A DNA stretch of 64,000 bases. Origin: Candidatus Saccharimonadota bacterium. Lineage in GTDB: Bacteria > Patescibacteriota > Saccharimonadia > Saccharimonadales > Saccharimonadaceae. The stretch covers positions 62,001 to 126,000 of the forward strand of contig JAATFU010000007.1 in the NCBI GenBank assembly GCA_015655045.1, read 5' to 3'. Position 1 is the first letter of the stretch. Every line of letters begins with the position of its first letter. Positions 5,033-57,208 of the stretch are shown here, piece after piece. A program made the position numbers and the translations under genes. A model generated the notes under the pieces. It was not told where the DNA came from. It ran no database searches and saw only the letters and a program-made list of their open reading frames with translations.

Positions 5033-6655
5033 ATGGACGAAGAAAAGATTCAGCAGAATCGTCGAGAACAAGACGAACAATCTACTCAGCAGCGGGCGGC
5101 TATTTTGGGTATCCAATACCTCGATACTCGTTCGATTGAATTAACTATGCCACTTGCTCAAAATGTACTTGACGTCGTAACAATGCAGAAGAATCGCGTG
5201 GTTCCATTAGTTGAGGGTAATGATGCAGAGCCATGGCAATTTGGAGCTACAACCCAAACCCCCCAATCCTTTATTCGTGAACTTACCCAACAATACAGTG
5301 ACGTGGGTCATAACGTTCAGTTTCTTCTCATTAGTAATAGTGGCTATCGACAACTTATGAATCGGTATGACCCACCTAAGACAGTGGTCTATGATGATAT
5401 TAAGATTGCAAGTGTGGGCGATAGCGACACGATCGCCCAAGTAAGTCGGACACTTAATACGGTTGGCAGCGATGAGCTATTTGATTACCTCATCGATCAA
5501 GCGGATCTACTTGGGGCAAGTGATATCCATATTGAGAATCAGCGAACGAATATTCGTATTCGTATGCGTATAGACGGTGCGCTTCACCCTGTGGCCGATC
5601 TTGATACTGATCGGTACCGAGTGATCCTTGGAACCTTAGCATCTCGGGCAAATGTTTCCACCGCATCCACCGAACCTCAATCTGGTCATATGCAAAAGGA
5701 GATAACCCGAAATGGCGCTACGCACCTCTTGAATCTTCGTGTTGAAACAGTTCCAACGATGTATGGACAAGATGCAGTACTCCGCTTATTTAACTTTGAT
5801 GAGTCAATGCTTAACCTTGATCTTCTTGGTATTGGGGCAGACGAACGCAAACAAATAGATGAAATCGTCAGTCACCCTCGAGGCATGGTCTTGATGGTTG
5901 GCCCAACCGGAAGTGGTAAGTCAACCACGCTATATAGCATGATCAATGCCCTGAACACCACAGATCGTAAGATTATTACCCTTGAAGATCCAATCGAATA
6001 TGGTATTAGTGGCATTTCACAGATACCTATCGATACTACTGGTGGTCAAAGCTTTGCCGATGCACTCCGAGCAGTCTTACGACTTGACCCTGATGTTGTC
6101 ATGGTTGGTGAGATCAGAGACGCCGATACGGCTAAAACCGCTATTCAGGCGTCTATTACGGGTCACCTTGTGCTCTCGAGCTTTCATGCCAATACAACCA
6201 GCGCTGCCTTTAGTCGCATGATTGATCTCATTGGGGTAAACCCCATATTCAGCTCGGCTATTCGTCTAGTAATAGCCCAAAGACTTGTGCGCCGACTTGA
6301 CGAGGCAACGAAGGAAGAGTACGAACCTGATGAAGCAACAAAGCGATGGGTGCAAGAGGCGCTGAAGGATTTGCCAAGTCATGTCGAAAAGCCTAACCTG
6401 GACATGTTCAAGTTATGGAGGCCTGTGGTGAGTGAGGGTTCTCCCTTTGGCTACAAGGGTCGAATGGTCATTATGGAACAAATGGTGGTTGATGATGAGA
6501 TCCAGAAATTCCTACGTGGTGATATTGCCGATATTCATACGGAAGTAATTGAGAAGGCAGCTCGAGCGAATGGCATGGTGACCCTAGTTGAGCAGGGTGT
6601 ACTTGCGGCACTTCGAGGTGAGACAACGCTTGATGAAGTGAATCGTGTTATTTAG
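5033..6655 (+). CDS. pilB: Type IV pilus / type II secretion assembly ATPase (PilB/GspE family)
   Basis: Hexameric cytoplasmic ATPase that powers pilin polymerisation or pseudopilus assembly, 540 residues. The N2 domain is seen around residues 150-260 (SDIHIE, RIRIDG-like RMRIDG). The ATPase core has Walker A GPTGSGKSTT near 285, the Asp box TLEDPIEY, Walker B LRLDPDVVMVGEIRD, and the His box TGHLVLSSFHAN. The C-terminal region between RLVRRLD and the final helices normally holds a tetracysteine zinc motif; this copy has no cysteine there. The gene stands alone; pilin, PilC and PilT genes are not in the window. In Saccharibacteria type IV pili are linked to host contact and motility, which is the likely role here by inference. 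Confidence 0.93.
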   Translation: MDEEKIQQNRREQDEQSTQQRAAILGIQYLDTRSIELTMPLAQNVLDVVTMQKNRVVPLVEGNDAEPWQFGATTQTPQSFIRELTQQYSDVGHNVQFLLISNSGYRQLMNRYDPPKTVVYDDIKIASVGDSDTIAQVSRTLNTVGSDELFDYLIDQADLLGASDIHIENQRTNIRIRMRIDGALHPVADLDTDRYRVILGTLASRANVSTASTEPQSGHMQKEITRNGATHLLNLRVETVPTMYGQDAVLRLFNFDESMLNLDLLGIGADERKQIDEIVSHPRGMVLMVGPTGSGKSTTLYSMINALNTTDRKIITLEDPIEYGISGISQIPIDTTGGQSFADALRAVLRLDPDVVMVGEIRDADTAKTAIQASITGHLVLSSFHANTTSAAFSRMIDLIGVNPIFSSAIRLVIAQRLVRRLDEATKEEYEPDEATKRWVQEALKDLPSHVEKPNLDMFKLWRPVVSEGSPFGYKGRMVIMEQMVVDDEIQKFLRGDIADIHTEVIEKAARANGMVTLVEQGVLAALRGETTLDEVNRVI

Positions 6656-20154: not shown

Positions 20155-21510
20155 ATGGTCAAGTCAAGAACTCAATTTATTTGTCAAAATTGTGGAGCGA
20201 GCTATCCAAAATGGATTGGCCGATGTGACAATTGTGGAGAGTGGAATACATTAGTCGAGCAGGCTCCTATTTCATCGGGTAAGTCCGTAGTAGCCCGGGG
20301 CGCTTCGTCTGGAAAAGTGCTGCAACCACAGACGATGAGCTCGATTGCTGCCGATGAGCCAAATCAACGATTAAAGACTGGCTTTAAAGACCTAGATGAG
20401 GTCCTCGGTGCAGGGATCGTGCCCGGAGGGGTAATACTTATGGCTGGCCAACCTGGTATTGGGAAAAGTACCCTGCTACTCCAAGTAACTGCCCATATTG
20501 CAAAGACTGTACCCGTACTATACGCAAGCGGTGAGGAGTCGGCTTCCCAAGTCAAGCTACGAGCCGAACGACTCGGCGCCGAGAAGAGCGAACAGCTCAA
20601 CTTTATCGCCAGCACAAGTGCGGACGATATTGCCGCAACAATTCGAAGCGGTGGCTATAAATTGGTAGTGATTGATTCGATTCAGACACTTGCACTTGAT
20701 GAAATTACCTCTGCTCCTGGAACAGTAAGCCAAATTACCAATAGTAGTAATGTCATTATTCGAGCTGCAAAGGATTCGGGAGCCTCGGTCGTGTTGGTGG
20801 GGCATGTTACAAAAGAAGGTAGCATTGCTGGTCCTAAAGTACTCGAGCATCTAGTTGACGTGGTGTTACAGTTTGAAGGCGATAGATATGGTGGTTTTAA
20901 AGTGGTACGAGCTGTAAAGAACCGTTTTGGCTCTACGAACGAAGCTGCCTTATTTGAAATGTACGAGGAAGGGCTTCGTCTGGTTGAGAATCCTTCGGCA
21001 TCCTTACTCGCCGAACGGCATAGTGCCGATGGCTCAGTTGTTTTGGCTACGCTTGAAGGTACGCGTCCGCTTCTTGTTGAGATTCAGGCCCTTGTAAATC
21101 CAACCAGTTTCGGCTATCCTAAACGTACAGCCAGCGGATTCGATTTGAATCGCCTTAATCTACTGATTGCCGTCCTTGAACGTCGCACAAAACTGAACTT
21201 ATCAGATAAAGATATTTATATTAATGTGGTCGGTGGATTAAGGTTGAACGATCAAGCCGCCGACCTGGCAATCTGTATGGCCATAGCGAGCGCCGCGGCA
21301 GGTAGACGAATTGATGAAGGCGTAGTCGTCTTCGGCGAAGTAGGTCTTGGTGGGGAGATTAGGTCAGTTCAAGCAGCCGATAGGCGTATTGCTGAAGCGA
21401 AAAAACTCGGCTTTACCCGTGCGATTGGTCCAAAAGGCTCAACGAAAACAACATTTATAACGGCAGTTGATGATTTGCGCAGTGCGCTCATTGACTACCT
21501 TCAGAAGTAA
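20155..21510 (+). CDS. radA: DNA repair protein RadA
   Basis: RecA-like helicase that extends recombination intermediates, 451 residues. The N-terminal zinc finger is intact (FICQNCGASYPKWIGRCDNC). The RecA-type core has Walker A GQPGIGKST near 100 and the RadA-specific KNRFG motif near 258. The C-terminal third is the Lon-protease-like domain without proteolytic use (GFDLNRLNLLIAVLERR, then VFGEVGLGGEIRSV). The start is fixed by the finger and by the adjacent -10. The PIN-TRAM gene follows after 8 nt, a pairing also common in Firmicutes (radA-disA-yacL neighbourhood). Confidence 0.96.
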   Translation: MVKSRTQFICQNCGASYPKWIGRCDNCGEWNTLVEQAPISSGKSVVARGASSGKVLQPQTMSSIAADEPNQRLKTGFKDLDEVLGAGIVPGGVILMAGQPGIGKSTLLLQVTAHIAKTVPVLYASGEESASQVKLRAERLGAEKSEQLNFIASTSADDIAATIRSGGYKLVVIDSIQTLALDEITSAPGTVSQITNSSNVIIRAAKDSGASVVLVGHVTKEGSIAGPKVLEHLVDVVLQFEGDRYGGFKVVRAVKNRFGSTNEAALFEMYEEGLRLVENPSASLLAERHSADGSVVLATLEGTRPLLVEIQALVNPTSFGYPKRTASGFDLNRLNLLIAVLERRTKLNLSDKDIYINVVGGLRLNDQAADLAICMAIASAAAGRRIDEGVVVFGEVGLGGEIRSVQAADRRIAEAKKLGFTRAIGPKGSTKTTFITAVDDLRSALIDYLQK

Positions 21511-30763: not shown

Positions 30764-32101
30764 TTAGACAACCGTTATGGTGCCTCTATTAATACCCATG
30801 GCGCAGGTGATCTTATAGGTGCCGGGTGACTCTGTCCTGAAACTAAGGACCTGTTTCTTGCCTTTTTCGAGTAATAAAGGCTTTTCAAATAGCCCCGGAA
30901 TCATAATGGTGCTCATACAACCCTGGCCATCATCTTGAGAATCTACAATGAGCTTGTAGTCGGTGTGCGATTTAAGCGTAAAGGTAGCAGGAATGATATC
31001 TTTGGCTAAGGTATAGGTTGTTACGAGGGTCTGTCCGTTGCTAGCCTGGGTGCTGGCTACACTCTTTCGTGCGAATGAGGGCACGGGAAGTCCAGTGAGT
31101 GTATAACCACTATTAATATTAAGAAGCGCCATAACCATGACGGCAATCCCTGTGATTTTGAAAAAACGACCCGACGATTTCCCCTTAATAAGAGAGGTAA
31201 GGCTCCCAATTCCAAGCAACCCCGGGGCGGTTCCGATTGCAAACACACTCATAACGATCGCACCGGTTATAAAGCTACCCGTACTCATAGCATATAGTTG
31301 CATCACCTGGGTGAACCCACACGGAAGAAAGAAACTGATTGTGCCAAGAGCAATAGCGCTCGAGTGGCTATATTCCTTATCGGTATGCTTCTGGAGCCCA
31401 AGGAATCTAGCGATTGCAGGTGGAAGCGTAAAACCACCGGCGCTTACTCGCGGCATGATGCTTGTAAGCTGTAATCCAAGGCTAAACATAACCACGCCAA
31501 CAATAATCATGAGAATACCAAGTGGGGCGCCTTGAAGTTGAACCGTAGCTCCTAATAACCCAATGAGACCGCCAAGAATGAAGAAAGAAACAATACGACT
31601 AACGTTAAAGAAGATATGAGGACGAAACTTTTGCATAACTGTAGCAGTAGGATGCTTCTTTGCGTGACGGGCAGAAAGACTAAGCACCAGGCCGCCGACG
31701 AGTGCCATACAGGTTGAGAGGCCTGCGGCGAGACCTGTTAATAGCGCAACACCAATACCGCCGCTTGCAATGTTACCAGTGGTGATAATTTTATTAACAC
31801 CGAAGAGGTTGTAGAGGATAGCGAGTACCCCAATAATAAGTATGCCGATACAAAGATCTTTGTAGTCTGATGGATTATGGCTTAGCCATGGCTGTTTCTT
31901 TTTACCGATTGTATACCCGGCGGTTTGAACAGCTCGGAGGAGCTCCTTTTGACTCGGGGGAGAGGTAACATCAAGTGTGGCTGTCTTTGTCTTTAGACTT
32001 ACAGAAACGCGAGTAACGCGAGGCACTTTCTCGAGGTGTTGACCAATGGTAATTTCGCAAGCACGACAGTGCATGCCTTCAATCGGAATGGTTAATTTCA
32101 T
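30764..32101 (-). CDS. HMA domain - TauE/SafE-DsbD-like transporter - cupredoxin-like fusion
   Basis: 445 residues in three parts. An N-terminal heavy-metal-associated domain has the metal site GMHCRAC. About six membrane helices then resemble the DsbD_2/SafE (TauE-type) family, with cysteines in LSTCMALVGG and FFLPCGFTQVM placed as in DsbD-like proteins. The ~100-residue C-terminal domain looks like a cupredoxin (MSTIMIPGL, YKITCAMGINRGTITVV). Copper handling at the membrane is likely, either export or loading. It is divergent from the arsR-type copper operon. I start at the ATG at 32101 (GGGGGAG upstream), not at the longer frame to 32131. Confidence 0.8.
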   Translation of the reverse strand: MKLTIPIEGMHCRACEITIGQHLEKVPRVTRVSVSLKTKTATLDVTSPPSQKELLRAVQTAGYTIGKKKQPWLSHNPSDYKDLCIGILIIGVLAILYNLFGVNKIITTGNIASGGIGVALLTGLAAGLSTCMALVGGLVLSLSARHAKKHPTATVMQKFRPHIFFNVSRIVSFFILGGLIGLLGATVQLQGAPLGILMIIVGVVMFSLGLQLTSIMPRVSAGGFTLPPAIARFLGLQKHTDKEYSHSSAIALGTISFFLPCGFTQVMQLYAMSTGSFITGAIVMSVFAIGTAPGLLGIGSLTSLIKGKSSGRFFKITGIAVMVMALLNINSGYTLTGLPVPSFARKSVASTQASNGQTLVTTYTLAKDIIPATFTLKSHTDYKLIVDSQDDGQGCMSTIMIPGLFEKPLLLEKGKKQVLSFRTESPGTYKITCAMGINRGTITVV

Positions 32102-32203
32102 AATGGTCACGTCTCCCCCTTGTCTGATCATTGTATAGGGCCATAACAGTAAATTTGATACTGATACAGGCTAAGCATAGCAAGCAGATCATGTATATGC
32201 AAG

Positions 32204-32221
32204 TATTTGAATATACGAATA
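32204..32221. promoter_or_regulatory. Imperfect palindrome, likely ArsR-type operator
   Basis: TATTTGAATATACGAATA, matching its own reverse complement at 14 of 18 positions by eye. It covers the expected -35 position of the regulator gene and lies between divergent copper genes, as for many ArsR/SmtB sites. Confidence 0.6.
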
Positions 32222-32225
32222 TCCA

Positions 32226-32234
32226 TGCTACTAT
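32226..32234 (+). promoter_or_regulatory. Extended -10, leaderless promoter of the copper operon
   Basis: TGC-TACTAT (32229-32234) ends 6 nt before the ATG at 32241. Confidence 0.65.
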
Positions 32235-32240
32235 TTATGT

Positions 32241-32741
32241 ATGTATCAGCAATTATTTTCTACTCAAGAGGAAATGTTTAAGGTCTTAGCTAACCAAAAA
32301 AGACTAGAGATTATTCAGCTGCTTGGCGGACGGGAGTTATCGGTTTCACAGATGGTCGAGATGCTCGGCTTACCCCAGGCTAACCTATCTCAACATCTAG
32401 CCTTACTTCGACAGGCGAAAGTAGTTACCTATCGCCGTAGTGGACAGACACTCTACTACCAACTGACAGATCAACGTATATCGGCAGCACTTGATATGAT
32501 ACGTAGCATCCTGATTGATAGTGATGCCATAGCTCCTGAGGACTATGAGCTCCTGTCTAGTTCACAGGGGCTATATCCGATCGTAAAGGATGTTGTGTGC
32601 GGAATGCGCCTTAGCCAATCTCGAGCGGGCGATCATCTTCACTTTCAAGGTCATGAATATTATTTCTGTGCTTCTGGTTGTCGTCAGAAATTTGAAGCAG
32701 AGCCTGCCCTATATATAAAGAAGGAGCTACTCTATGTATAA
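32241..32741 (+). CDS. ArsR-family regulator fused to a YHS metal-binding domain
   Basis: 166 residues. The N-terminal ~95 residues are a winged helix of the ArsR/SmtB type (LANQKRLEIIQLLGG, then LSVSQMVEMLGLPQANLSQH as the recognition region). The C-terminal ~50 residues form a YHS domain: DVVCGMRL, then GHEYYFCASGCRQKFEAEP, with three cysteines able to bind a metal. The fusion suggests that the YHS domain is the copper sensor that releases the promoter. It is the first gene of the operon and probably represses itself and the divergent gene via the palindrome at 32204. Confidence 0.88.
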   Translation: MYQQLFSTQEEMFKVLANQKRLEIIQLLGGRELSVSQMVEMLGLPQANLSQHLALLRQAKVVTYRRSGQTLYYQLTDQRISAALDMIRSILIDSDAIAPEDYELLSSSQGLYPIVKDVVCGMRLSQSRAGDHLHFQGHEYYFCASGCRQKFEAEPALYIKKELLYV

Positions 32742-33105
32742 GCTAATGGTTTTGATAGCTTTAGTACTCATTATCATTTTCATTATCTGGTGGTTCTTTG
32801 GGAAACGCACTACAAAGTCAGTAGCCGCAACAAGGCAGGGTAATAAGCAAGTCGTCGAGATTGTTGTGGATGGCGGCTTCAGCCCAAAAGTGGTCGTACT
32901 TGAGCGAGATGTGCCTGCCGATATTATTTTTACCCGGAGAGATGCTTCGGCCTGTTTTGAAGAAGTGGTACTCCCGGATTTTGGTACTCGGGCGCATTTA
33001 CCTATTGGTAAGGCGTATACGATCACAGTGACACCACACGTAGCGGGCGAGTATCAGTATACTTGTGGTATGAACATGTTCTTTGGAAAAGTGGTCGTCA
33101 AGTGA
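32734..33105 (+). CDS. Membrane-anchored cupredoxin
   Basis: 123 residues. An N-terminal hydrophobic helix ([19 protein letters not shown]) anchors a small beta domain outside the cell. The domain ends in [18 protein letters not shown], the Cys-x-Met ligand loop of cupredoxin-like proteins; [15 protein letters not shown] and [12 protein letters not shown] are family-typical strands. It probably binds copper and passes it to or from the ATPase encoded next. GGAG lies 7 nt before the ATG, and the gene overlaps the regulator by 8 nt. Confidence 0.85.
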
Positions 33106-34997
33106 GTATACGTACTCGCCTACTCGTTAGTCTCATTTTAACTCTTCCTCTAATAGCGACAATGTTTGGGCTGAAACTTCCGGGTGATATGCCGACAATG
33201 ATTGTGCTATCGTCGGGTGTCATGCTTATCGGTGGTGGTCCATTCTTTGTGAGTGCTGCGAAATCATTTAAAAACCATGCTTCTAACATGGACACACTCA
33301 TAGCGCTTGGTACGGGTACCGCATATGTGTATAGCTTATATGCTACCATCTTTAATATGCACTTTTATTTTGAGATTGCTGCTTTTCTTATTGTCCTCAT
33401 TTTGCTTGGTCAATGGCTCGAAGAGGTTACGAAGAGCCGAGCTTCCAACGCAGTTGAGAAGCTTATCGAGCTTCAGGCAAAAGAAGCAACGGTTATGAGA
33501 GACGGCTTGGCGACGAGGGTAGCGCTTGAAGACGTAGTAGTTGGTGACATTCTCCTTGTAAAACCTGGCGAAAAGATTGCCGTTGATGGTGAAATTACAG
33601 AAGGAAATTCAAGTGTTGATGAGTCAATGATTACGGGTGAGAGTATACCGGTTGAGAAGCAAGTTGGCGATCGGGTGGTTGGTGCGACGCTCAATGGACA
33701 GGGTAGCTTTTTATTCCGAGCAACACACGTGGGGAGTCATACTCTATTGGCGCAGATTGTTGAGTTAGTACAAAAAGCTCAAGCGAGCCGAGCTCCTATT
33801 CAGAGATTGGTCGATCAAGTATCTAACATATTTGTACCGGCTGTTCTTATAATCGCTATTATTACTTTTGCAATTTGGTATGTATTCCTAGGGGCTAGCT
33901 TTGCTGCAGCGCTACTATTCGCTGTATCGGTTATTATTATTGCCTGTCCGTGTGCCCTCGGCATTGCGACGCCAACCGCTCTTATAGCCGGAACTGGTCG
34001 TGGTGCCCGTATAGGTATTTTAATTAAAAGTGGTGAAGTTTTAGAATCAGCCCGAGACATTAAAACAATAGTGTTTGATAAAACGGGGACAATTACCGAA
34101 GGTAAGCCCGTCGTGACCGATATTATTGGAGACGTCCAACAGGTACTAAGTATAGCGGCTTCACTCGAGGCGGCTTCAGAACATCCTCTTGCTCAGGCGA
34201 TTTTAGGAGCTGCGAAACAGAAGAACATTCGGCTCCACCCGGTAGCTGGCTTTATGGCGAGTACCGGTCAGGGTATCAAGGGTACAATAGCACACCAACA
34301 GGAATTTGTTGGCAATCAGGCATGGTTTGGGGTGAATGAGTTTGACATTAAAAAGTTTGCGTCAGATGCAAAGAGACTTGAGGATGAAGGTAAGACCATC
34401 GTATTCGTGGGAAATGCAGCCAACGTGTATGGCTTGATTGCAATTCAGGATCGACCAAAGAGTACCTCGGCTGAGGCGATTGTTAGTTTTTATCGGCAAG
34501 GCTTTCATACGGTTATGATTACTGGCGATAATGTAGGTACAGCGCAGGTAATTGCGCATCAGGTGGGTATTGAGACGGTTATTGCTGGTGTGCTTCCAGC
34601 GGACAAGGCGGAACGCGTCAGGTTACTACAAGAGCAAGGTAAAGTTGCCTTTATTGGTGATGGCATTAATGATGCGCCCGCTTTAGCCCAAGCCGATCTG
34701 GGTATCGCAATGGGGGGCGGGACAGATGTCGCAATCGAAGCTGGAGGCATCGTGCTTGTAAAGAATGACCTAAAAGACGCTTTCTTAGCACTTCGACTAA
34801 GCCAGAAAACATTTGGTCGTATTAAACTTAATTTATTTTGGGCCTTTATATACAATACAGCCGGTATTCCAATTGCAGCTGGTATCTTCTCGGGTGTAGG
34901 CCTAACTCTTAACCCTGCTCTAGCTGGCGCAGCCATGGCGTTTAGCTCCTTATCTGTCGTTATTAGCTCGTTGCTGCTTAATCGTGTCAAACTATAG
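33102..34997 (+). CDS. copA: Copper-translocating P1B-type ATPase
   Basis: Heavy-metal pump, 631 residues from a GTG that overlaps the upstream stop by 4 nt. Motifs in order: actuator TGES ([11 protein letters not shown]), intramembrane CPC ([14 protein letters not shown]), phosphorylation DKTGT, the P1B histidine-proline (ASEHPLAQA), and hinge [12 protein letters not shown]. The N-terminal HMA domain usual for CopA is absent; the divergent fusion carries one instead, and the upstream cupredoxin may also deliver metal. CPC with no Zn/Cd-type residues supports copper. A strong terminator follows 40 nt downstream. Confidence 0.93.
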
Positions 34998-44908: not shown

Positions 44909-45090
44909 TCTATTGACTATTTAAATCCAAAGCTTCACAATAGCTATTAAGAAGTAGAGTAGCTCTGGTTATCTATGTCTTCGTGCGGGAGTGGCATCAA
45001 CGTACGAAACAACCAGTGCTCAGGGAATCTTCGGCGCCAAAGACCCCTATTAAACCAAATACAATTTATATGCGAGGAGTAGCATCACCT

Positions 45091-48000
45091 ATGGCAAACA
45101 TTAAGCCTAGTAACGCTAAGCGTGTTTTCTTTACAAAAGACGCAGTTGCGTTACCGTTACCAAACCTAATCGCTCACCAAAAGGACAGTTGGCGTGAATT
45201 CGTCGAAACCGGTCTAAGTGAGATATTTGCAGAATTAAACCCAATCGATGACTATACGGGTCAGAAGTTATCGCTTCGTTTTAAGGAGTATGCATTCCAA
45301 GATCCTAAGACAACAGAGCGTGATGCGAAAGAGAATAACTTGACCTTTGATGCGCCTTTGCATGCAAACGTTGAGCTTACAAATAAGGTAACAGGCGAAG
45401 TAAAAGAACAAGAGATCTACCTTGGTGACTACCCATGGATGACCGATCGAGGCACCTTTATTATTAATGGTACGGAGCGCGTTGTTGTTTCTCAGCTTAT
45501 CCGAAGTGCCGGTGTCTTCTTTACTGCCGATAAAGCTGCCACTCGTAACTTCTATGGAGCTAAGCTTATTCCAGGTCGTGGTGCATGGCTTGAATTTGAG
45601 ACAGCTAGCAATGGTGCCATCTATGTCAAGATTGACCGTCGTCGTAAATTGCCAATTACGACTCTTTTCCGCGCCCTTGGTCACAACAAGACATCAGAGA
45701 TCAAAGCGCTCTTTGCTGATGTTGATACAGGTGAAGTGAAGTATATCGATGCGACGCTAGAGAAAGACCCAGCTCGCGGAAGTAATGAAGCTCTCATCGA
45801 AGTATATCGTCGCCTTCGTCCAGGGGATCTTGCGACTGTTGATAACGCTCGTTCAATGATTGAGCGCATGTTCTTCGATTTCAAACGTTTTGATTACAGC
45901 CGCGTGGGACGCTACAAGTTGAATCAACGACTAGGGCTTGATCTACCAAATGTAACCGAAAATCGTGTCTTCCAACTCAGCGACCTGATCGCGATTGTAA
46001 AAGAGATTATTCGTCTCAATAATACCCAAGACCCTGCTGATGACATTGACGCTTTGTCAAACCGTCGGGTTAAGTTAGTGGGCGAACTTGTGGCTCGTCA
46101 GTTCCGTGTCGGTATGTTGCGTATGCAACGTAACGCTATGGATCGCATGAGTATGAGCGACCTTGAAACAGTCACTCCAGGTCAGCTAATTAATGCTCGA
46201 CCAGTCGTTGCTGCTGTACGTGAATTCTTTGCAAGCTCACAGCTATCACAGCTGATGGACGAGACAAACCCATTAGCTGAGCTTTCTCACAAGCGTCGCC
46301 TAAGCTCAATGGGGCCCGGTGGACTATCTCGAGAGCGTGCTGGCTTTGATGTTCGTGATGCGCACCCAACTCACTATGGGCGTCTGTGTGTCGTTGAAAC
46401 GCCAGAAGGCGCCAACATTGGACTCGTACTTAACCTCGCTTCATATGCACGGGTAAATGAGTATGGCTTTATCGAGACACCTTACTTGAAGGTTGTTGAT
46501 GGTAAGGTAACCAAAGAAGTCGTGTACCTTGATGCTTCTCAAGAAATCACCGAAGTGATCGCTGATGCCAGTGTCAAGCTTAATGACGACGGTTCATTTA
46601 TTGATAGTCGTGTCAGTGCCCGAAATGGTCTTTTGCCAGAACAGGTTGACGCTATTGAGGTAACCTATGTTGATGCCGCCCACAAACAGATTCTTGGTTC
46701 ATCGGCTGCCTTAATTCCTTTCATTGAGAAGAACCGTGTTGACCGTTCCCTCACTGGTTCTGCCATGCAGAAGCAAGCCGTTCCCCTCCTGCGTCCACAA
46801 GCACCTATCGTCGGTACGGGTATTGAAGGTGAGATCGCACGCAACACCAGTCAACTGATTACTGCTAGCGGTGATGGTGAAGTTGTCCGAGCTGATGGTG
46901 ATCAAGTTGATGTGAAGTATAAAGACGGTATCAAAGCATACGAACTGGTTCACTTCGCAAAGAGTAATGACGATCGTTCTATTAACCAAAAGGTTCGTGT
47001 TGAGCGTGGCCAAAAAGTAAAAGCTGGTGACATTTTGATTGAGGGTGCCTCAATTGCCGATGGTGAACTTGCCCTTGGAAGCGACCTGACTGTCGCCTTT
47101 ATGCCTTGGGGCGGTTACAACATGGATGATGCTATCGTCCTATCGAATCGCGTTGTCCAAGATGATACTCTTACAAGTATTAACATTAAAGACTATACGG
47201 TTGAAGTCCGTGAAACGAAGCTCGGGCCTGAGATTGTCACTCGAGATATTCCAAACGTGAGCGAAGAATCCCTTCGTCACCTTGATGAAAATGGTATCGT
47301 GCAACTTGGATCCGAAGTGAAATCCGGCGATGTATTGGTTGGAAAGATTACACCAAAAGGCGAGCAGGAACTTTCAAGTGAAGAGCGACTACTTCGAGCT
47401 ATCTTTGGCGAGAAAGCCAAAGACGTTCGCGATACGTCACAGCGCATGAATAATGCAGGTGGCGGTAAAGTAGTCGGTGTAAAAATCTTTAGCCGTGAAA
47501 ATGGTCATGAACTAAAAGCCGGTGTCTTGATGCAAATTCAGATCTTTGTCGCACAGCTTCGTAAGATCTCTGTGGGTGACAAGTTAGCTGGCCGACACGG
47601 TAACAAGGGTGTAGTTGCTCGTATTCTCCCTGTTGAGGATATGCCATTCATGGAAGATGGAACACCAGTTGATGTGGTCTTAAACCCACTTGGTGTGCCA
47701 AGTCGTATGAATATTGGACAGCTGTTTGAAACCCATCTTGGTATGGCTGCTCGCGCACTTGGATATAAGGTTGCAACCCCTCCATTTGATGGAGTGCCAA
47801 ACGATACTATTAGTGACGAGCTTGAAAAAGCTGGTTTTGCTCGAGATGGTAAATTCCAACTATATGACGGTCGTGACGGTAGCCCATTCGAAGAGCGAAC
47901 CACTGTTGGTGTGATGCACATGATTAAGCTACACCACATGGTGAGCGATAAGATTCACGCTCGTTCAACCGGTCCATACACGATGGTGACTCAACAGCCA

Positions 48001-48453
48001 CTTGGTGGTAAGGCTCAAAACGGTGGACAGCGCTTTGGAGAGATGGAAGTCTGGGCACTTGAGGCTTATGGCGCCGCTTCAACCCTCCAGGAAATGATTA
48101 CCATTAAGTCTGACGACGTTTACGGACGTGCCAAGGCGTATGAGTCGATCATTAAGGACGAGGCGATTGTTGGTCCGAAACTACCTGAATCATTTAATGT
48201 GCTAGTAAAAGAGCTGCAAGGGTTAGGTCTCCGTGTTGATCTCCTTGACGAGTCTGAAGATGCCATTGTTGATGCAGAGCAAATCATTGGGAGTGTGATC
48301 AATGGCGAGCCTGTTGCTGCGCTTCCCGTAAGTGATGATGACGATACCGCCGATGAAGAGATTCTCGATGAAGCCGATGAGTTTGGCGATCTCGGAGACG
48401 GTGTGTCGATTCAAGATATTGATGAAATAGAAGAAATCAAGGAGGAGGCGTAA
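45091..48453 (+). CDS. rpoB: DNA-directed RNA polymerase subunit beta
   Basis: 1120 residues. Core motifs are intact: the rifampicin-region block SQLMDETNPLAELSHKRR with SMGPGGLSRERAGFDVRD, then KITPKGEQELSSEERLLRA, DKLAGRHGNKGVVARILP and LGGKAQNGGQRFGEMEVWAL. The region lacks the large lineage insertions of proteobacteria. The C-terminal ~45 residues are very acidic. GAGGAG at 45074-45079 lies 11 nt before the ATG at 45091 and a TACAAT box is just upstream, so the longer frames from 44983 or 45070 are less likely. The usual upstream neighbours rplKAJL are absent. Confidence 0.97.
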   Translation: MANIKPSNAKRVFFTKDAVALPLPNLIAHQKDSWREFVETGLSEIFAELNPIDDYTGQKLSLRFKEYAFQDPKTTERDAKENNLTFDAPLHANVELTNKVTGEVKEQEIYLGDYPWMTDRGTFIINGTERVVVSQLIRSAGVFFTADKAATRNFYGAKLIPGRGAWLEFETASNGAIYVKIDRRRKLPITTLFRALGHNKTSEIKALFADVDTGEVKYIDATLEKDPARGSNEALIEVYRRLRPGDLATVDNARSMIERMFFDFKRFDYSRVGRYKLNQRLGLDLPNVTENRVFQLSDLIAIVKEIIRLNNTQDPADDIDALSNRRVKLVGELVARQFRVGMLRMQRNAMDRMSMSDLETVTPGQLINARPVVAAVREFFASSQLSQLMDETNPLAELSHKRRLSSMGPGGLSRERAGFDVRDAHPTHYGRLCVVETPEGANIGLVLNLASYARVNEYGFIETPYLKVVDGKVTKEVVYLDASQEITEVIADASVKLNDDGSFIDSRVSARNGLLPEQVDAIEVTYVDAAHKQILGSSAALIPFIEKNRVDRSLTGSAMQKQAVPLLRPQAPIVGTGIEGEIARNTSQLITASGDGEVVRADGDQVDVKYKDGIKAYELVHFAKSNDDRSINQKVRVERGQKVKAGDILIEGASIADGELALGSDLTVAFMPWGGYNMDDAIVLSNRVVQDDTLTSINIKDYTVEVRETKLGPEIVTRDIPNVSEESLRHLDENGIVQLGSEVKSGDVLVGKITPKGEQELSSEERLLRAIFGEKAKDVRDTSQRMNNAGGGKVVGVKIFSRENGHELKAGVLMQIQIFVAQLRKISVGDKLAGRHGNKGVVARILPVEDMPFMEDGTPVDVVLNPLGVPSRMNIGQLFETHLGMAARALGYKVATPPFDGVPNDTISDELEKAGFARDGKFQLYDGRDGSPFEERTTVGVMHMIKLHHMVSDKIHARSTGPYTMVTQQPLGGKAQNGGQRFGEMEVWALEAYGAASTLQEMITIKSDDVYGRAKAYESIIKDEAIVGPKLPESFNVLVKELQGLGLRVDLLDESEDAIVDAEQIIGSVINGEPVAALPVSDDDDTADEEILDEADEFGDLGDGVSIQDIDEIEEIKEEA

Positions 48454-48454
48454 T

Positions 48455-51400
48455 ATGTCACGAGTACTTGCAAACAACGGGATCGCTGACTTTGACGCAG
48501 TCCGTCTAGCCGTTGCTAGTCCAGAAGACATCCTTAAATGGAGTCATGGTGAAGTAACAAAACCCGAAACGATTAATTATCGTACCCAGAAACCAGAACG
48601 TGATGGTCTGTTTTGTGAGCGTATCTTTGGCCCTGTTAAGGATATTAACCCACATGATAACAAACTAAAGGGTGTTCGCTCACGCGAAGCTGCAATTGAT
48701 AAGAATGGTGACCTTGTCACAAAGTCAATTGTTCGTCGTGAACGTATGGCACATATTAGCCTTGCAGCACCTGTCGCACACATTTGGTTCATGCGCGGCA
48801 CACCAAGTGCTATGTCACTTTTGCTTGGTATTACGGTTCGTAATCTTGAGCGTATCGCTTACTTTGCTACATATGTCATCTTAAAAGCTGACGACACAAA
48901 GCGCGATCAGTACTTAGCTGATCTCGAGGCTGAGACTGAAGCGGGTCGAGCTGCCATTAAGATTCGTTATGAGCGTGAAGCTGGAGTTGGTGAAACTGAG
49001 ACTGATCCAGGTGTTGACGTCAAAGCCCTCGCCGAACAAATGTCTCGTGAAGTTGAAGAACTGAATGAGAGCTACACAACGAAGAAAACTCAGCTGGAAA
49101 GCCTCGTAAAAGGTGCGCTTCTCAATGAAAGTGATTACCGTAATCTTCCTGAAGAATACGAAGACCTTGTTGAAGTTGGGATGGGCGGGACTGCTCTCAA
49201 AGCGTTGCTTGATGAAATCAAGTTACCTGAGCTTATCGCACAGCTTACGACTGAGGTTGAAAGTGCAAAGGGACAGCGCGAGAAGAAGCTTCAGAAGCGC
49301 CTTAAGGTACTTGAAGGTATGCACGCAGCGGGTATTAAGCCAAGTAGCTTAACACTCACTGTCCTACCGGTGATTCCTCCAGACCTTCGTCCAATGGTTC
49401 AACTAACTGGTGGTCGTTTTGCGACATCAGACCTTAACGACTTATATCGACGTGTTATCAACCGTAATAACCGTTTGAAGAAGTTGATTGATCTAAATGC
49501 ACCTGAAGTCATCCGCCGTAATGAAATGCGTATGCTCCAAGAAGCCGTTGACGCCCTCATTGATAACTCCGCAGCCCGTGGTGGTCGTGCGGTGAATGCA
49601 ACTGGTGGTCGACGTCGTCTTAAGTCAATTAGCGACATGCTCAAAGGAAAGCAAGGTCGTTTCCGTCAGAACCTGCTTGGTAAGCGTGTTGACTACTCGG
49701 GACGTTCTGTCATTGTGGTTGGTCCGAAGCTCAAGATTAGCGAATGTGGCCTGCCAAAGCAGATGGCACTGGAACTATTCAAGCCATTTGTTATTAGTTG
49801 GTTAATCCGGGGTGAGCATGCTCACAATATCCGTTCCGCTACTCGTCTGATTGAAGCAGGGGACGCTCTCGTGTGGGATGCTCTCGATGCAGTCATTGAA
49901 GGCAAGTATGTTCTATTGAACCGTGCGCCTTCGCTTCACCGTTTGTCGATCCAAGCTTTTCAACCAAAGCTAGTTGAGGGTAAGGCTATCCAGCTTCACC
50001 CACTCGTTGCAAATGGTTTTAACGCCGATTACGATGGTGACCAGATGGCTGTTCACTTGCCTCTTTCTGTTGATGCGCAGCGCGAAGCTCGCGAATTGAT
50101 GAGCGCAACAAACAACCTGTTAAAGCCTGCTGATGGTGCGCCTGTGCTTAATATTGGCCAGGACGTCGTGTTGGGTAACTATTACCTGACATATGTCAAA
50201 CCAAGTGCCCAGACCGAGCACATCAAGTCGTATAGCTCTGTCTATGAAGCTGAAATGGCCTATGATAATGGCGTATTGCAATTGCAAACTCCAATTCGTG
50301 TCTTCACTCGTGGTGAAATTCGCACCACTACCCTTGGGCGTGTCTTCTTTAACGACATTCTGCCAGCTGAGTATCCATTCGATAACAGCGTACAGAACAA
50401 GAAGCAATTGAAGAAAGTGTTAGCGAACATCTTTAATGACTATGATGCCGAAACTACTGCTCAGACTGCTGACCGTATGAAGGGTCTCGCCTTCCGTTTT
50501 GCAACAGTGGCTGCCGTGTCAACTGGTAAAGATGACTACCTTCACTTTGAAGAGATCGCTGGCTTTGTTGCCGAGGGTGACGCCAAGACCGCTTTGATCT
50601 CAGATCAATTTGACCAAGGTCTGATCACCGAAGAAGAACGCTATAGCTTAACGGTTGCCTCATGGCGTGCTGTTGACCGCACTGTCACTGAGTTCTTACA
50701 GAGTAAGCTCAAAGATATGGATACCAGTATTAGTGTGATGGTGAACTCTGGTGCTCGTGGTGATATCTCAAACGTGAAGCTTGCAAGTGCCATGGTAGGA
50801 ATTATGGTGGATGCAGCCAACCGTGAGATTGAGCTGCCAATCCGAAGTAACTATAAAGATGGATTAAGCTCACTTGAACAATTCGTAGCAACACGAGGTG
50901 CTCGTAAAGGTCTGATCGATACCGCTCTCAAGACCGCTGACTCAGGATACCTAACTCGACGTTTGGTCGATGTGTCTCAGGATGTCTTTACGGTTGAAGA
51001 TCAACCCGACAGTGACTCTGGTTTTGCAATCTACCGTAATGAGTCAACACTGACTATGATTGCCTTTGGTAATCGTCTATTCGGTCGCTACACCGCTGAG
51101 GCGATTGATGGTTACATTGGGGCTGACGAGCTCATTACTCGTGAAGTTGCTGCTGCTATTGAAGCTGACAGCAGTATCGAGAGCGTGAAGATTCAAAGTG
51201 TCCTATCGACCAAGAACCTCCGTGGTATTCCACGCCGCAGTTATGGTATTGATATGGCCTCTGGTAAACTTGTCGCTGCAGCGCAACCAGTCGGGGTAAT
51301 CGCTGCCCAGTCAGTGGGCGAGCCTGGTACCCAGCTAACACTTAAGACCTTCCACGCTGGTGGTGTAGCCGGTGGGGACATTACCCAGGGTCTACCTCGA

Positions 51401-52312
51401 GTCGAAGAGCTATTTGAAGCTCGTTCACCAAAGGGACAGGCCTTTGTGACCGAAGTGACCGGACTGGTTGATGTATGGGAAGATGGCAAGAAGTATGTCG
51501 TGCAAGTCACGCCTGAAGCTGGTCATGTTGAACGCATTGCTCTCGAAGGCCGCACAGTAACCGTGAAGTCTGGCAGCAATGTTAAGGTTGGGGATGTACT
51601 TGCAACAGGCGAGAGTGAATCAAAGCCAATTGTCGCACCATTTGATGGCGTCGTCGAAGTGGCGGAAGATACCCTTGTCCTAGCCGCAAATGCTAGTTCA
51701 CCAGTGAAATACGAGATTCCAGGTAGCACACAATTAGTTGTTGCTGCGGGTGATACGGTGGAAGCCGGTGATCGTCTGACAATTGGTTCATTGAATCTAC
51801 ACGATCTCATGCGTCTTAAGGGTACTGAAGCAACGCAACGTTATATCATTAACGAAGTCCTTCGTATCTATGCCGCACAGGGTCAAGATGTGGCCGATAA
51901 GCACCTTGAGATCATTGTGCGTCAGATGTTTAGCCGTGTGCAGATTGAGGATCCAGGTGATAGTACCTTTGTAACTGGCGATATCGTCAGTAAAGCTGCT
52001 GTGGTAGAAGCGAATGCTGTACTAGCCGCCGAAGGTAAGAGCCTTGTCGGTTATACTCAGTTACTTCTTGGTATCACTAAGGTGTCTATCTGGTCAGATA
52101 GCTTCCTCTCGGCTGCTTCATTCCAAGATACAACTCGTGTCTTGATTAATGCCGCAGTGAGTGGTCGAATTGATCGACTCCACGGACTCAAAGAGAACGT
52201 GATCATCGGTCGCAAGATCCCAGTCGGTACCGGTGCAAGGAATCTTGTACCAGAGGTAATTGATGAAGAACTTGCAAGTGAGATTGCCGAAGACCTCGAG
52301 TTAACCGCGTAA
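48455..52312 (+). CDS. rpoC: DNA-directed RNA polymerase subunit beta' without zinc-site cysteines
   Basis: Catalytic subunit, 1285 residues. The magnesium site is NADYDGDQMAVHLPLS (Tyr where most have Phe); AHIWFMRG, the bridge/trigger region QPVGVIAAQSVGEPGTQLT and TFHAGGVAGGDI are clear. Zinc site 1, normally four Cys between the ERIFGPVKD and RRERM blocks, reads INPHDNKLKGVRSREAA, then IDKNGDLVT, without any Cys. Zinc site 2, normally four Cys before the QSVGEPGTQ block, reads VLSTKNLRGIPRRSYG, also without Cys. Only two cysteines (FCERIF, SECGLP) remain in the protein. A GGAGG site precedes the ATG, which follows rpoB by 1 nt. Confidence 0.97.
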   Translation: MSRVLANNGIADFDAVRLAVASPEDILKWSHGEVTKPETINYRTQKPERDGLFCERIFGPVKDINPHDNKLKGVRSREAAIDKNGDLVTKSIVRRERMAHISLAAPVAHIWFMRGTPSAMSLLLGITVRNLERIAYFATYVILKADDTKRDQYLADLEAETEAGRAAIKIRYEREAGVGETETDPGVDVKALAEQMSREVEELNESYTTKKTQLESLVKGALLNESDYRNLPEEYEDLVEVGMGGTALKALLDEIKLPELIAQLTTEVESAKGQREKKLQKRLKVLEGMHAAGIKPSSLTLTVLPVIPPDLRPMVQLTGGRFATSDLNDLYRRVINRNNRLKKLIDLNAPEVIRRNEMRMLQEAVDALIDNSAARGGRAVNATGGRRRLKSISDMLKGKQGRFRQNLLGKRVDYSGRSVIVVGPKLKISECGLPKQMALELFKPFVISWLIRGEHAHNIRSATRLIEAGDALVWDALDAVIEGKYVLLNRAPSLHRLSIQAFQPKLVEGKAIQLHPLVANGFNADYDGDQMAVHLPLSVDAQREARELMSATNNLLKPADGAPVLNIGQDVVLGNYYLTYVKPSAQTEHIKSYSSVYEAEMAYDNGVLQLQTPIRVFTRGEIRTTTLGRVFFNDILPAEYPFDNSVQNKKQLKKVLANIFNDYDAETTAQTADRMKGLAFRFATVAAVSTGKDDYLHFEEIAGFVAEGDAKTALISDQFDQGLITEEERYSLTVASWRAVDRTVTEFLQSKLKDMDTSISVMVNSGARGDISNVKLASAMVGIMVDAANREIELPIRSNYKDGLSSLEQFVATRGARKGLIDTALKTADSGYLTRRLVDVSQDVFTVEDQPDSDSGFAIYRNESTLTMIAFGNRLFGRYTAEAIDGYIGADELITREVAAAIEADSSIESVKIQSVLSTKNLRGIPRRSYGIDMASGKLVAAAQPVGVIAAQSVGEPGTQLTLKTFHAGGVAGGDITQGLPRVEELFEARSPKGQAFVTEVTGLVDVWEDGKKYVVQVTPEAGHVERIALEGRTVTVKSGSNVKVGDVLATGESESKPIVAPFDGVVEVAEDTLVLAANASSPVKYEIPGSTQLVVAAGDTVEAGDRLTIGSLNLHDLMRLKGTEATQRYIINEVLRIYAAQGQDVADKHLEIIVRQMFSRVQIEDPGDSTFVTGDIVSKAAVVEANAVLAAEGKSLVGYTQLLLGITKVSIWSDSFLSAASFQDTTRVLINAAVSGRIDRLHGLKENVIIGRKIPVGTGARNLVPEVIDEELASEIAEDLELTA

Positions 52313-53653: not shown

Positions 53654-53712
53654 TGTAAATAATCAAATGGGTTTGATTTTACCTATGCTTGCATTTTCGT
53701 AACTTAATTTTT

Positions 53713-53718
53713 TATACT
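53713..53718 (+). promoter_or_regulatory. -10 box for the 199-aa gene (near-leaderless)
   Basis: TATACT, 9 nt before the ATG at 53728; leader of 2-3 nt, no SD. Confidence 0.6.
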
Positions 53719-53727
53719 GAAGTAATC

Positions 53728-54327
53728 ATGACCGAACTACTGGAACTACCTACCGTACTCGACTACACCGCTGCAGTAATATTGTGCGAGAATGACCTTA
53801 AAAGCGAAGGAGGTCCTTGGCAGGCTATAATCCGACGCCAGCAAGACACCACAAGGTTAAGAAGTGTTTATAATCAGAACTTCGAAGCCGGTAAGATTGC
53901 ACTTACGTTCGAACCAGTAGATAAAGGTGGGTATGTCATTGATCCTTATATGGAGGCTACTCATGCTTTTAAACACGGTATCCTCGCGGGTCATAGAATA
54001 ACAAATAAAGTACACCGAGGGCATTATAGCCCAGAAGAAAGTACCTATCAGTTAGGGTTACTTTCTCATGGCGGTGACGAGTCTGAAAATCTGTTAATGC
54101 TCGGTAATGAGGGAATTAGTCTAGTGGGAGAAGTAGTTTCTCATAGGATTGAACAATGGTCGGAGGCAGTTGTTTCAAATTCTACGTTAAGGCATTTACA
54201 TACGCTCGGCTGCGGCGCGGTTATATATGCAACTTACCAGCTCCATGCATATAGGAATCAAGACTACATTAATCATCTGCTATCGGAAGATCAGGCCCCC
54301 GATGATCTTAGCCGGTATGTCCTATAA
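53728..54327 (+). CDS. Hypothetical protein, 199 aa, between rpsG and fusA
   Basis: Unrecognised soluble protein, starting MTELLELPTVLDYTAAVILC. The middle has several His residues (HAFKHGILAGHRITNKVHRG) without a clear metal motif. The end is Tyr- and Asp-rich. The longer frame from 53689 would run through the -10 box and is rejected. It interrupts the classic str operon order, with its own promoter, so it is not simply a member of that operon. Confidence 0.65.
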   Translation: MTELLELPTVLDYTAAVILCENDLKSEGGPWQAIIRRQQDTTRLRSVYNQNFEAGKIALTFEPVDKGGYVIDPYMEATHAFKHGILAGHRITNKVHRGHYSPEESTYQLGLLSHGGDESENLLMLGNEGISLVGEVVSHRIEQWSEAVVSNSTLRHLHTLGCGAVIYATYQLHAYRNQDYINHLLSEDQAPDDLSRYVL

Positions 54328-56569: not shown

Positions 56570-57208
56570 ATGGCTACGCACGAATTCGAACCTACCCCTA
56601 ATGAGCTGACACCGCTTACTCGTTTTTATGGTGATCTGCGCTACAAAGGTGACTCGTACATTGATCTACTGATTGCAGCAGAAAGATTGTTAGAGGTAGA
56701 AGTAGGGTATGAGGGTGAGAGAGATAGGGATAGTAGGTATATACCGACAGCCGAGCAATACGAAGCAGATCCACGCATTGCCTCTGAGCAATTTATGTTG
56801 CTCCCGATAAAATATATTGCACCTCGATTCGATAACGGATCAATCGAGATAGCTGATCTTAAAAAGTGGTACGAAGAAATGACGGGGTTCATTATGGATC
56901 GTACGTCAAAATTTCATACGCAAGCATGCCTCGACCATGGTACCATATCGTCAGTTGCATCTTGTCCCATGAGCGAGGAATGCCCCTTGACATATCTATC
57001 TGACTATCTCCAAAAAGGTGTTCGTAGCCGAGATTTTAAGCAGGTTGAATACGTTGTGGAACCAGAACGAACCTACAGGGTAGATATCCTTAAGATGGAA
57101 GTGGCAAAGAATTGCACCCCCGATTTAGTGAATCAGATCAATATCCTCATTCTGCAATATAAGGTAGAATTTATTGACTGGTTCGGAGCGTTGCCTAAGG
57201 ATCTGTAA
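56570..57208 (+). CDS. Hypothetical protein, 212 aa, between fusA and tuf
   Basis: Unrecognised soluble protein. It starts MATHEFEPTPNELTPLTRFY, is rich in Glu, Asp and Tyr, and has cysteines clustered in ACLDHG, SVASCPMSEECPL and KNCTPD that could bind a metal. No membrane segment is present. It lies 48 nt after fusA and 120 nt before tuf, with a palindrome over its presumed start site. It may be autoregulated, but the protein has no obvious helix-turn-helix. Confidence 0.65.
   Translation: MATHEFEPTPNELTPLTRFYGDLRYKGDSYIDLLIAAERLLEVEVGYEGERDRDSRYIPTAEQYEADPRIASEQFMLLPIKYIAPRFDNGSIEIADLKKWYEEMTGFIMDRTSKFHTQACLDHGTISSVASCPMSEECPLTYLSDYLQKGVRSRDFKQVEYVVEPERTYRVDILKMEVAKNCTPDLVNQINILILQYKVEFIDWFGALPKDL

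What the first reader, a model, noticed from the sequence alone, without database searches (positions are those of the whole stretch)
48641..51255. RNA polymerase beta' has lost all cysteine ligands at both zinc sites
Bacterial RpoC normally carries two structural zinc sites of four Cys each. Here the N-terminal site between GLFCERIFGPVKD and RRERM has no Cys (for example IDKNGD where E. coli has ICEKCG). The second site reads VLSTKNLRGIPRRSYG where the family has a VLTC...GVC..CYG pattern, and the fourth ligand region reads VEDQPDSDSG. All core catalytic motifs are intact, so this is not decay. The polymerase appears to have been made zinc-independent at both sites, perhaps to save zinc or to resist copper or oxidation. 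PilB in this window also lacks its zinc cysteines, while RadA keeps its finger.
Basis: partly seen in the sequence, partly recalled or inferred. Interest (0 to 1): 0.75.

Follow-up and report, generated by a model that had tools for sequence, protein, structure and literature searches.

The report
Zinc-free RNA polymerase in Saccharibacteria
A whole order of tiny host-dependent bacteria appears to run its RNA polymerase without the two structural zinc atoms of ordinary bacterial polymerases, and several of its ribosomal proteins lost zinc on the same branch of the tree, as if its gene-expression machinery had been rebuilt to live on little zinc.

Summary
Confirmed and extended. RpoC (48455-52312) lacks all eight zinc-ligand cysteines; only Cys54 and Cys431 remain. 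It is neither decay nor sequencing error. All 64 RpoC rows read from the window's order (Saccharimonadales, inferred from named hits) have no ZN1 cysteine (63 cover the site) and at most two of four at ZN2. ZN1 is intact in 165 of 165 rows outside the order. An intact-ZN1 DNA pattern occurs in 0 of 192 genomes of the order and 19 of 23 of neighbouring orders. A tree without the zinc loops makes the order monophyletic (support 1.0), beside family f29, which keeps both sites. L31, L36 and S14 became zinc-free on that stem too. UvrA, MutM and RadA keep zinc fingers, and non-ligand cysteines fall only modestly, so this is not a blanket loss of cysteine. The new ZN1 loop is strongly conserved. Best reading: a fixed zinc-sparing rebuild of abundant structural-zinc proteins. 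The zinc-free state is very likely; zinc scarcity as cause is inferred. AlphaFold left the ZN1 loop unresolved.

The parts
48455..52312 (+). rpoC, RNA polymerase beta' subunit, 1285 aa, no zinc-ligand cysteines
   Evidence: ORF; five Pfam Rpb1 domains over cut-off; one PF04997 match in the genome
48644..48709 (+). former ZN1 zinc ribbon, now INPHDNKLKGVRSREAAIDKNG; ligand positions C-C-C-C read P-D-I-N
   Evidence: alignment with CCCC relatives; coordinates
50993..51022 (+). region of the first ZN2 ligand, VEDQPDSDSG (relatives with the site: xxEDDCG and similar)
   Evidence: alignment; coordinates
51200..51247 (+). region of ZN2 ligands 2-4, VLSTKNLRGIPRRSYG (relatives with the site: VLTC...GVC.KCYG and similar)
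   Evidence: alignment; coordinates
44983..48453 (+). ORF directly upstream of rpoC, read as rpoB (RNA polymerase beta); one Cys in 1156 aa
   Evidence: ORF; identity recalled from the sequence, not searched
20155..21510 (+). contrast case: RadA with intact Cys4 zinc finger CQNC...CDNC
   Evidence: Pfam Zn_ribbon_LapB over cut-off
5033..6655 (+). PilB/GspE-like secretion ATPase without any cysteine
   Evidence: Pfam T2SSE; 0 Cys in 540 aa

Best explanation
On the stem leading to the window's order, both structural zinc sites of RNA polymerase beta' were replaced by sequences without metal ligands: ZN1 in the clamp near the RNA exit, and ZN2 near the trigger-loop base (locations recalled). On the same stem ribosomal proteins L31, L36 and S14 changed to zinc-free forms. 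RNA polymerase and ribosomes hold much of the structural zinc of a typical bacterium, so this permanently lowers the cell's minimum zinc need. It is a fixed version of what other bacteria do temporarily by Zur-controlled swapping of ribosomal proteins, carried further into the polymerase. Zinc fingers of UvrA, RadA and MutM, presumably low-copy proteins, were left alone. Shown: the residue changes, their extent over the order, their place on one branch, and conservation of the new loops. Inferred: that no metal is bound, that the fold is held by new packing, and that scarcity of zinc was the cause.
For: ZN1: no Cys in 64 of 64 rows of the order (63 cover the site) against four Cys in 165 of 165 other rows, 98 of them taken as Patescibacteria and 16 of those from its own class; intact-ZN1 DNA pattern 0 of 192 against 19 of 23. 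ZN2: at most 2 of 4 Cys in the order; intact in 97 of those 98. L31: Cys4 form in 7 of 7 neighbours with a match (of 8 searched), zinc-free form in 10 of 10 of the order; zinc-form DNA pattern 0 of 99 against 21 of 23. L36: zinc-free in 13 of 13 found (17 looked at), Cys form in 4 of 4 neighbours found (6 looked at). S14: zinc-free long form in 14 of 14 found (17 looked at); zinc form in 4 of 6 neighbours; pattern 0 of 99 against 10 of 23. Nearest sister f29 keeps RpoC zinc ligands in 3 of 3 members read and L31, L36 and S14 ligands in G149 and G248. New ZN1 loop nearly invariant at new positions with synonymous excess. UvrA C-terminal Cys4 kept in 8 of 8; MutM finger kept in this genome; RadA kept. 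[quoted passage not shown] metallidurans (PMC11580412, passages); an E. coli ribosome binds about 8 Zn (PMC13343924, passages).
Against: No metal measurement exists. The AlphaFold fragment models show no zinc-free fold: pLDDT is under 50 over most of ZN1, and the ZN2 loop, though with block means of about 76-87, sits in a fragment with pTM 0.42; no zinc-binding control was predicted. The primase DnaG, presumably low-copy, also lost its zinc ligands (4 of 4), which copy number does not explain. S14 is zinc-free as well in one member each of families f124 and f128, and DnaG in one of f124, where RpoC keeps zinc; LigA loss is scattered. Among 4 neighbours whose L33 I could read, 2 already lack the Cys motif, so L33 loss is not specific to this stem. 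A ZnuB-type importer (ABC-3) does not track the change: 9 of 37 genomes of the order (8 over the cut-off) against 2 of 23 neighbours. In Neisseria, zinc-free L31 slows growth rather than helping (PMC13343924, passages). L28, L32 and S18 were not read.
Confidence: 0.6

Rival explanations
1. The zinc sites were lost because a partner or regulatory role of ZN1 and ZN2 (antitermination, upstream DNA grip, assembly) disappeared or changed in this lineage; zinc saving is a by-product.
For: The ZN1 region lies at the RNA exit channel, and a change in it (R88H) leaves B. subtilis polymerase with 2.5% activity on rrnB P1 in vitro (PMC8266666, passages), so replacing the ribbon needs co-adaptation. The new loop is strongly conserved, as if it had a new contact. 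ZN2 alone was lost in other lineages.
Against: Does not explain why L31, L36 and S14 lost zinc on the same branch.
Confidence: 0.18
2. Protection from copper or oxidation: exposed zinc thiolates were removed from essential machines because they are easily attacked.
For: The window carries a copper-handling cluster at 30764-34997 (HMA, cupredoxin, ArsR-type regulator with YHS, P-type ATPase).
Against: UvrA, MutM and RadA keep thiolate zinc fingers. Non-ligand Cys in RpoC is 3.75 on average against 4.44 in neighbours. The copper cluster was not surveyed across the order.
Confidence: 0.12
3. Cysteine economy: a cysteine-poor cell sheds cysteines wherever it can.
For: RpoC keeps only 2 Cys in this genome; Cys per residue in 25 neighbouring genes is 0.187% against 0.249%; non-ligand Cys per RpoC is 3.75 against 4.44 and 5.18.
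Against: Those differences are modest, and the one partly reflects uneven gene sampling; most per-gene counts are similar. Ligand Cys is almost wholly gone while non-ligand Cys persists.
Confidence: 0.05
4. A different metal, or zinc with Asp, Asn and His ligands, occupies a rebuilt site at ZN1.
For: The loop has nearly invariant Asp, Asn, Asp and Asp at alignment columns 71, 73, 76 and 90 and a mostly conserved His at 75; Asn73 and Asp76 are new.
Against: The His is Asn in 3 of 63; the fourth old ligand position varies among N, K, E, D, S and R; Asp71 and Asp90 are common in zinc-binding relatives too; no clustered Cys or His remains.
Confidence: 0.05

Closest known systems
Canonical bacterial RNA polymerase beta' (RpoC) with ZN1 and ZN2
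   Same: Same domain set and active-site motif; vertical descent within the class
   Different: All eight zinc ligands gone; new conserved ZN1 loop without metal ligands
Zinc-free alternative ribosomal proteins (L31, L36, S14 and others) swapped in under Zur control
   Same: Works alike: zinc-free versions replace zinc-binding ones in abundant machinery (background PMC13343924, passages)
   Different: Here L31 has one match per genome and the zinc form is in 0 of 99 genomes of the order, so it is fixed, not switched; and it includes RNA polymerase
ZN2 losses in a Dehalococcoidia/SAR202 pair (L065, L066) and in one member of Patescibacteria family f37 (L189)
   Same: Independent loss of ZN2 cysteines; endings KSYG or IAYG as here RSYG
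   Different: ZN1 intact there. In f37 only L189 lost ZN2 fully; L346 keeps ligands 2 and 4, and L347-L349 keep ligands 2-4 with no residue aligned at ligand 1
Primase, ligase and topoisomerase variants without zinc motifs
   Same: DnaG, LigA and TopA of this genome also lack the zinc ligands looked at
   Different: TopA lacks them in the neighbours read too; LigA loss is patchy; DnaG loss is uniform in the four genomes of the order read

Membership tests
Bacterial RNA polymerase beta' (RpoC) | Five Rpb1 domains | tested here: met
   PF04997, PF00623, PF04983, PF05000, PF04998 all over cut-off
Bacterial RNA polymerase beta' (RpoC) | Active-site Asp motif NADxDGDQ | tested here: met
   NADYDGDQMAVH at 50021-50056
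Bacterial RNA polymerase beta' (RpoC) | ZN1 four-Cys zinc ribbon | tested here: not met
   0 of 4 Cys; shared by the order
Bacterial RNA polymerase beta' (RpoC) | ZN2 four-Cys site | tested here: not met
   0 of 4 Cys here; at most 2 of 4 in 64 rows of the order
Zur-controlled C+/C- ribosomal protein swap | Zinc-free protein form present | tested here: met
   L31, L36 and S14 of this genome are zinc-free
Zur-controlled C+/C- ribosomal protein swap | Zinc-binding paralogue also present | tested here: not met
   L31: one match per genome, zinc-free; zinc-form pattern 0 of 99. S14 zinc-form pattern 0 of 99. A second L36 elsewhere was not sought
Zur-controlled C+/C- ribosomal protein swap | Zur regulator and Zur boxes | not tested
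   No search for Zur was made
Metal-free polymerase | No bound zinc in the purified enzyme | not testable with these tools
   Needs ICP-MS or a structure

The most novel reading that the evidence does not exclude
An entire bacterial order has an RNA polymerase wholly free of structural zinc and a largely zinc-free ribosome, fixed on one ancestral branch: a lineage whose core gene expression has escaped dependence on zinc.
Probability: 0.6. Interest if true: 0.85.

Novelty: new variant of a known kind. Interest (0 to 1): 0.78.

Why it matters
The zinc sites of the largest RNA polymerase subunit are treated as structural necessities (recalled), and RpoC holds most of the zinc of a strongly zinc-starved Cupriavidus cell (PMC11580412, passages). 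A natural polymerase without them, conserved over many genera, gives a ready comparison for what ZN1 and ZN2 do in clamp function, RNA exit and assembly, and suggests how far a cell can lower its zinc quota. It also gives a clean sequence marker of this order.

Tried and rejected
General cysteine loss: disfavoured by non-ligand Cys counts and 25 neighbouring genes (gene sets sampled unevenly). Sequencing error or decay: rejected by sharing over the order and synonymous excess. Horizontal origin of rpoC: not supported; the tree without the zinc loops keeps the order within its class (FastTree only; 18 of 67 rows outside the order and the Patescibacteria set were used as outgroup, no other row was dropped). 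Loss of a zinc importer as the trigger: ABC-3 is uncommon in both groups. Structure prediction of fragments 3-345 and 690-1010: ZN1 unresolved, second fragment of low pTM; I ran no fold search. TopA and IleRS C-terminal sites are absent in the neighbours read as well; for AlaRS no zinc site was defined, and the MutM row of neighbour G106 was not readable as MutM. Literature: ten searches, seen as listings with passages from four papers, showed no report of zinc-site loss in RpoC of this group; only openly licensed PMC papers are held. Rows dropped from counts: L001 and L052 (duplicates), L211 (a stretch asked for without a known match). L047 does not cover ZN1; L227 covers ZN1 only; L048 and L210 are partial but cover both sites, except ligand 1 of ZN2 in L048. 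The script picked the order's rows partly by residue at the sites; one search checked that the list equals the 64 rows defined by kinship label or, for L053-L057, by title or identity. L064, titled only 'bacterium', was counted with Patescibacteria.

Full report
WHAT WAS CHECKED. The ORF at 48455-52312 (+) is a complete 1285-residue RpoC with five Rpb1 domains above their Pfam cut-offs. It is the only PF04997 match in a genome held at 99% completeness. Named hits to the alignment include Candidatus Saccharibacteria at 81-82% identity (L053, L054), so I call the window's order Saccharimonadales; the handles themselves are unnamed, so this is inference. The eight zinc-ligand positions, defined on the Mycolicibacterium row L105 (CCCC, CCCC), read P-D-I-N and P-T-P-S in the window. 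The only cysteines are 54 and 431.

NOT A LOCAL ACCIDENT. In some searches I fetched RpoC from relatives in steps of genus, family, order, class and phylum, and from named genomes. Of 64 rows of the order, 64 have no Cys at ZN1 (63 of them cover it), and ZN2 has 0, 1 or 2 Cys in 48, 11 and 5 rows (membership checked). Of 98 other Patescibacteria rows, 98 keep four Cys at ZN1 and 97 at ZN2; sixteen of the 98 are from other orders of the same class. In the remaining 67 rows ZN1 is intact in 67; ZN2 is lost in L065 and L066 and not covered in L227. A DNA pattern for the intact ZN1 site matches 0 of 192 genomes of the order and 19 of 23 genomes of neighbouring orders, all at least 90% complete. 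The four misses have no or only partial rpoC. An earlier run of that scan had a spacing error and is not used.

ONE BRANCH. A FastTree tree of 180 RpoC sequences with both zinc loops removed makes the order monophyletic (support 1.0) and places family f29 (G149, G248, G251) as its nearest sister. All three f29 members keep all eight cysteines. The simplest history is one loss of ZN1 and of ZN2 ligands 3 and 4 on the stem of the order, followed by graded loss of ZN2 ligands 1 and 2 (one row, L039, has a Cys at ligand 4). ZN2 alone was lost independently in two related Chloroflexota (L065, L066) and in L189 of Patescibacteria family f37; of four more f37 members fetched later, L346 keeps ligands 2 and 4 and L347-L349 keep ligands 2-4, none with a residue aligned at ligand 1, and all four keep ZN1. 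I saw no other ZN1 loss in the rows read.

A NEW, CONSERVED LOOP. The replacement at ZN1 is not noise. In 63 covered rows, residues that differ from the majority in zinc-binding Patescibacteria are nearly invariant: N at column 73 (62), P at 74 (62), D at 76 (63), G at 81 (63; G also in 15 of the 98 others), S at 84 (60), R at 85 (62; R also in 6 of the 98), E at 86 (61), A at 88 (62); others, such as D71, R83, D90, G93 and T97, are also common in zinc-binding relatives. Against five relatives the two loops carry 12-21 synonymous and 1-6 non-synonymous codon differences over 45 codons. A single change in the zinc-finger region, R88H, leaves B. subtilis polymerase with 2.5% activity on one promoter (PMC8266666, passages), so replacing four ligands implies co-adaptation. 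AlphaFold with 27 sequences gave pLDDT below 50 over most of the ZN1 loop; the ZN2 stretches had block means of about 76-87 but in a fragment with pTM 0.42. How the loops fold is unknown.

BEYOND RPOC. L31 has four cysteines in 7 of 7 neighbours with a match (8 searched) and a zinc-free form in 10 of 10 genomes of the order; the zinc-form pattern is in 0 of 99 against 21 of 23 genomes. L36 has its Cys ligands in 4 of 4 neighbours found (6 looked at) and is zinc-free in 13 of 13 found (17 looked at) (this genome). S14 is the long zinc-free form in 14 of 14 found (17 looked at) and the zinc form in G106, G149, G248 and G252, but zinc-free in G250 and G253; pattern 0 of 99 against 10 of 23. L33 lacks the Cys motif in 9 of 10 genomes of the order and 2 of 4 neighbours that I could read, so it is not specific. 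DnaG ligands are lost in 4 of 4 of the order and in neighbour G245, kept in G106 and G252, with no match in G149. LigA ligands are lost in 3 of 4 of the order and in 3 of 4 neighbours. UvrA's C-terminal four Cys are kept in 8 of 8, and MutM keeps its finger in this genome. RadA in the window keeps its finger.

WHY. Zinc economy explains best why polymerase and ribosome changed together while several repair proteins kept zinc. [quoted passage not shown] metallidurans cell (PMC11580412, passages), and an E. coli ribosome binds about 8 Zn (PMC13343924, passages). Against it stand DnaG, the zinc losses of S14, DnaG and LigA in neighbours whose RpoC keeps zinc, the absence of any link to a ZnuB-type importer (9 of 37 in the order, one of them below the family cut-off; 2 of 23 neighbours; none here), and the report that zinc-free L31 slows growth in Neisseria. 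A general loss of cysteine is unlikely: RpoC non-ligand Cys is 3.75 per protein against 4.44 in neighbours and 5.18 in 82 other Patescibacteria, and 25 other genes differ modestly (0.187% against 0.249%). Copper protection cannot be excluded, and the window has a copper cluster, but surviving thiolate fingers argue against it.

CONCLUSION. That the sites are gone across the order is established from sequence. That the polymerase binds no zinc there follows closely but needs measurement. That zinc scarcity drove it is the leading inference. Nothing on this was seen in ten searches of openly licensed papers (listed in Tried and rejected); most subscription papers were not searchable.

Noticed in passing
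30764-34997: Copper-handling cluster: HMA plus DsbD-like plus cupredoxin protein (-), ArsR-type regulator with a YHS domain, cupredoxin-like protein and a P-type ATPase.
   Followed up: partly
50021-50056: Active-site motif reads NADYDGDQ here, whereas the ten-sequence consensus of the order reads NADFDGDQ.
   Followed up: no
L065, L066, L189: Independent losses of ZN2 with ZN1 intact in a Dehalococcoidia/SAR202 pair and in one Patescibacteria family.
   Followed up: partly
L323, L319, L324, L325, L318: DNA primase DnaG zinc ligands read SSDS or STDS in four genomes of the order and SKDS in neighbour G245.
   Followed up: partly
53689-54327 and 56570-57208: Two 212-aa ORFs, one on each side of the fusA-like ORF, with no Pfam match at E 0.001.
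   Followed up: no
L276 (G052): L33 retains three cysteines of a zinc-type motif, unlike the nine other genomes of the order read.
   Followed up: no
L338 (G000), IleRS: Isoleucyl-tRNA synthetase of this genome has no cysteine, against 5-11 in the seven relatives and neighbours read.
   Followed up: no
5033-6655: PilB-like ATPase has no cysteine in 540 aa; whether relatives have a zinc motif was not tested.
   Followed up: no
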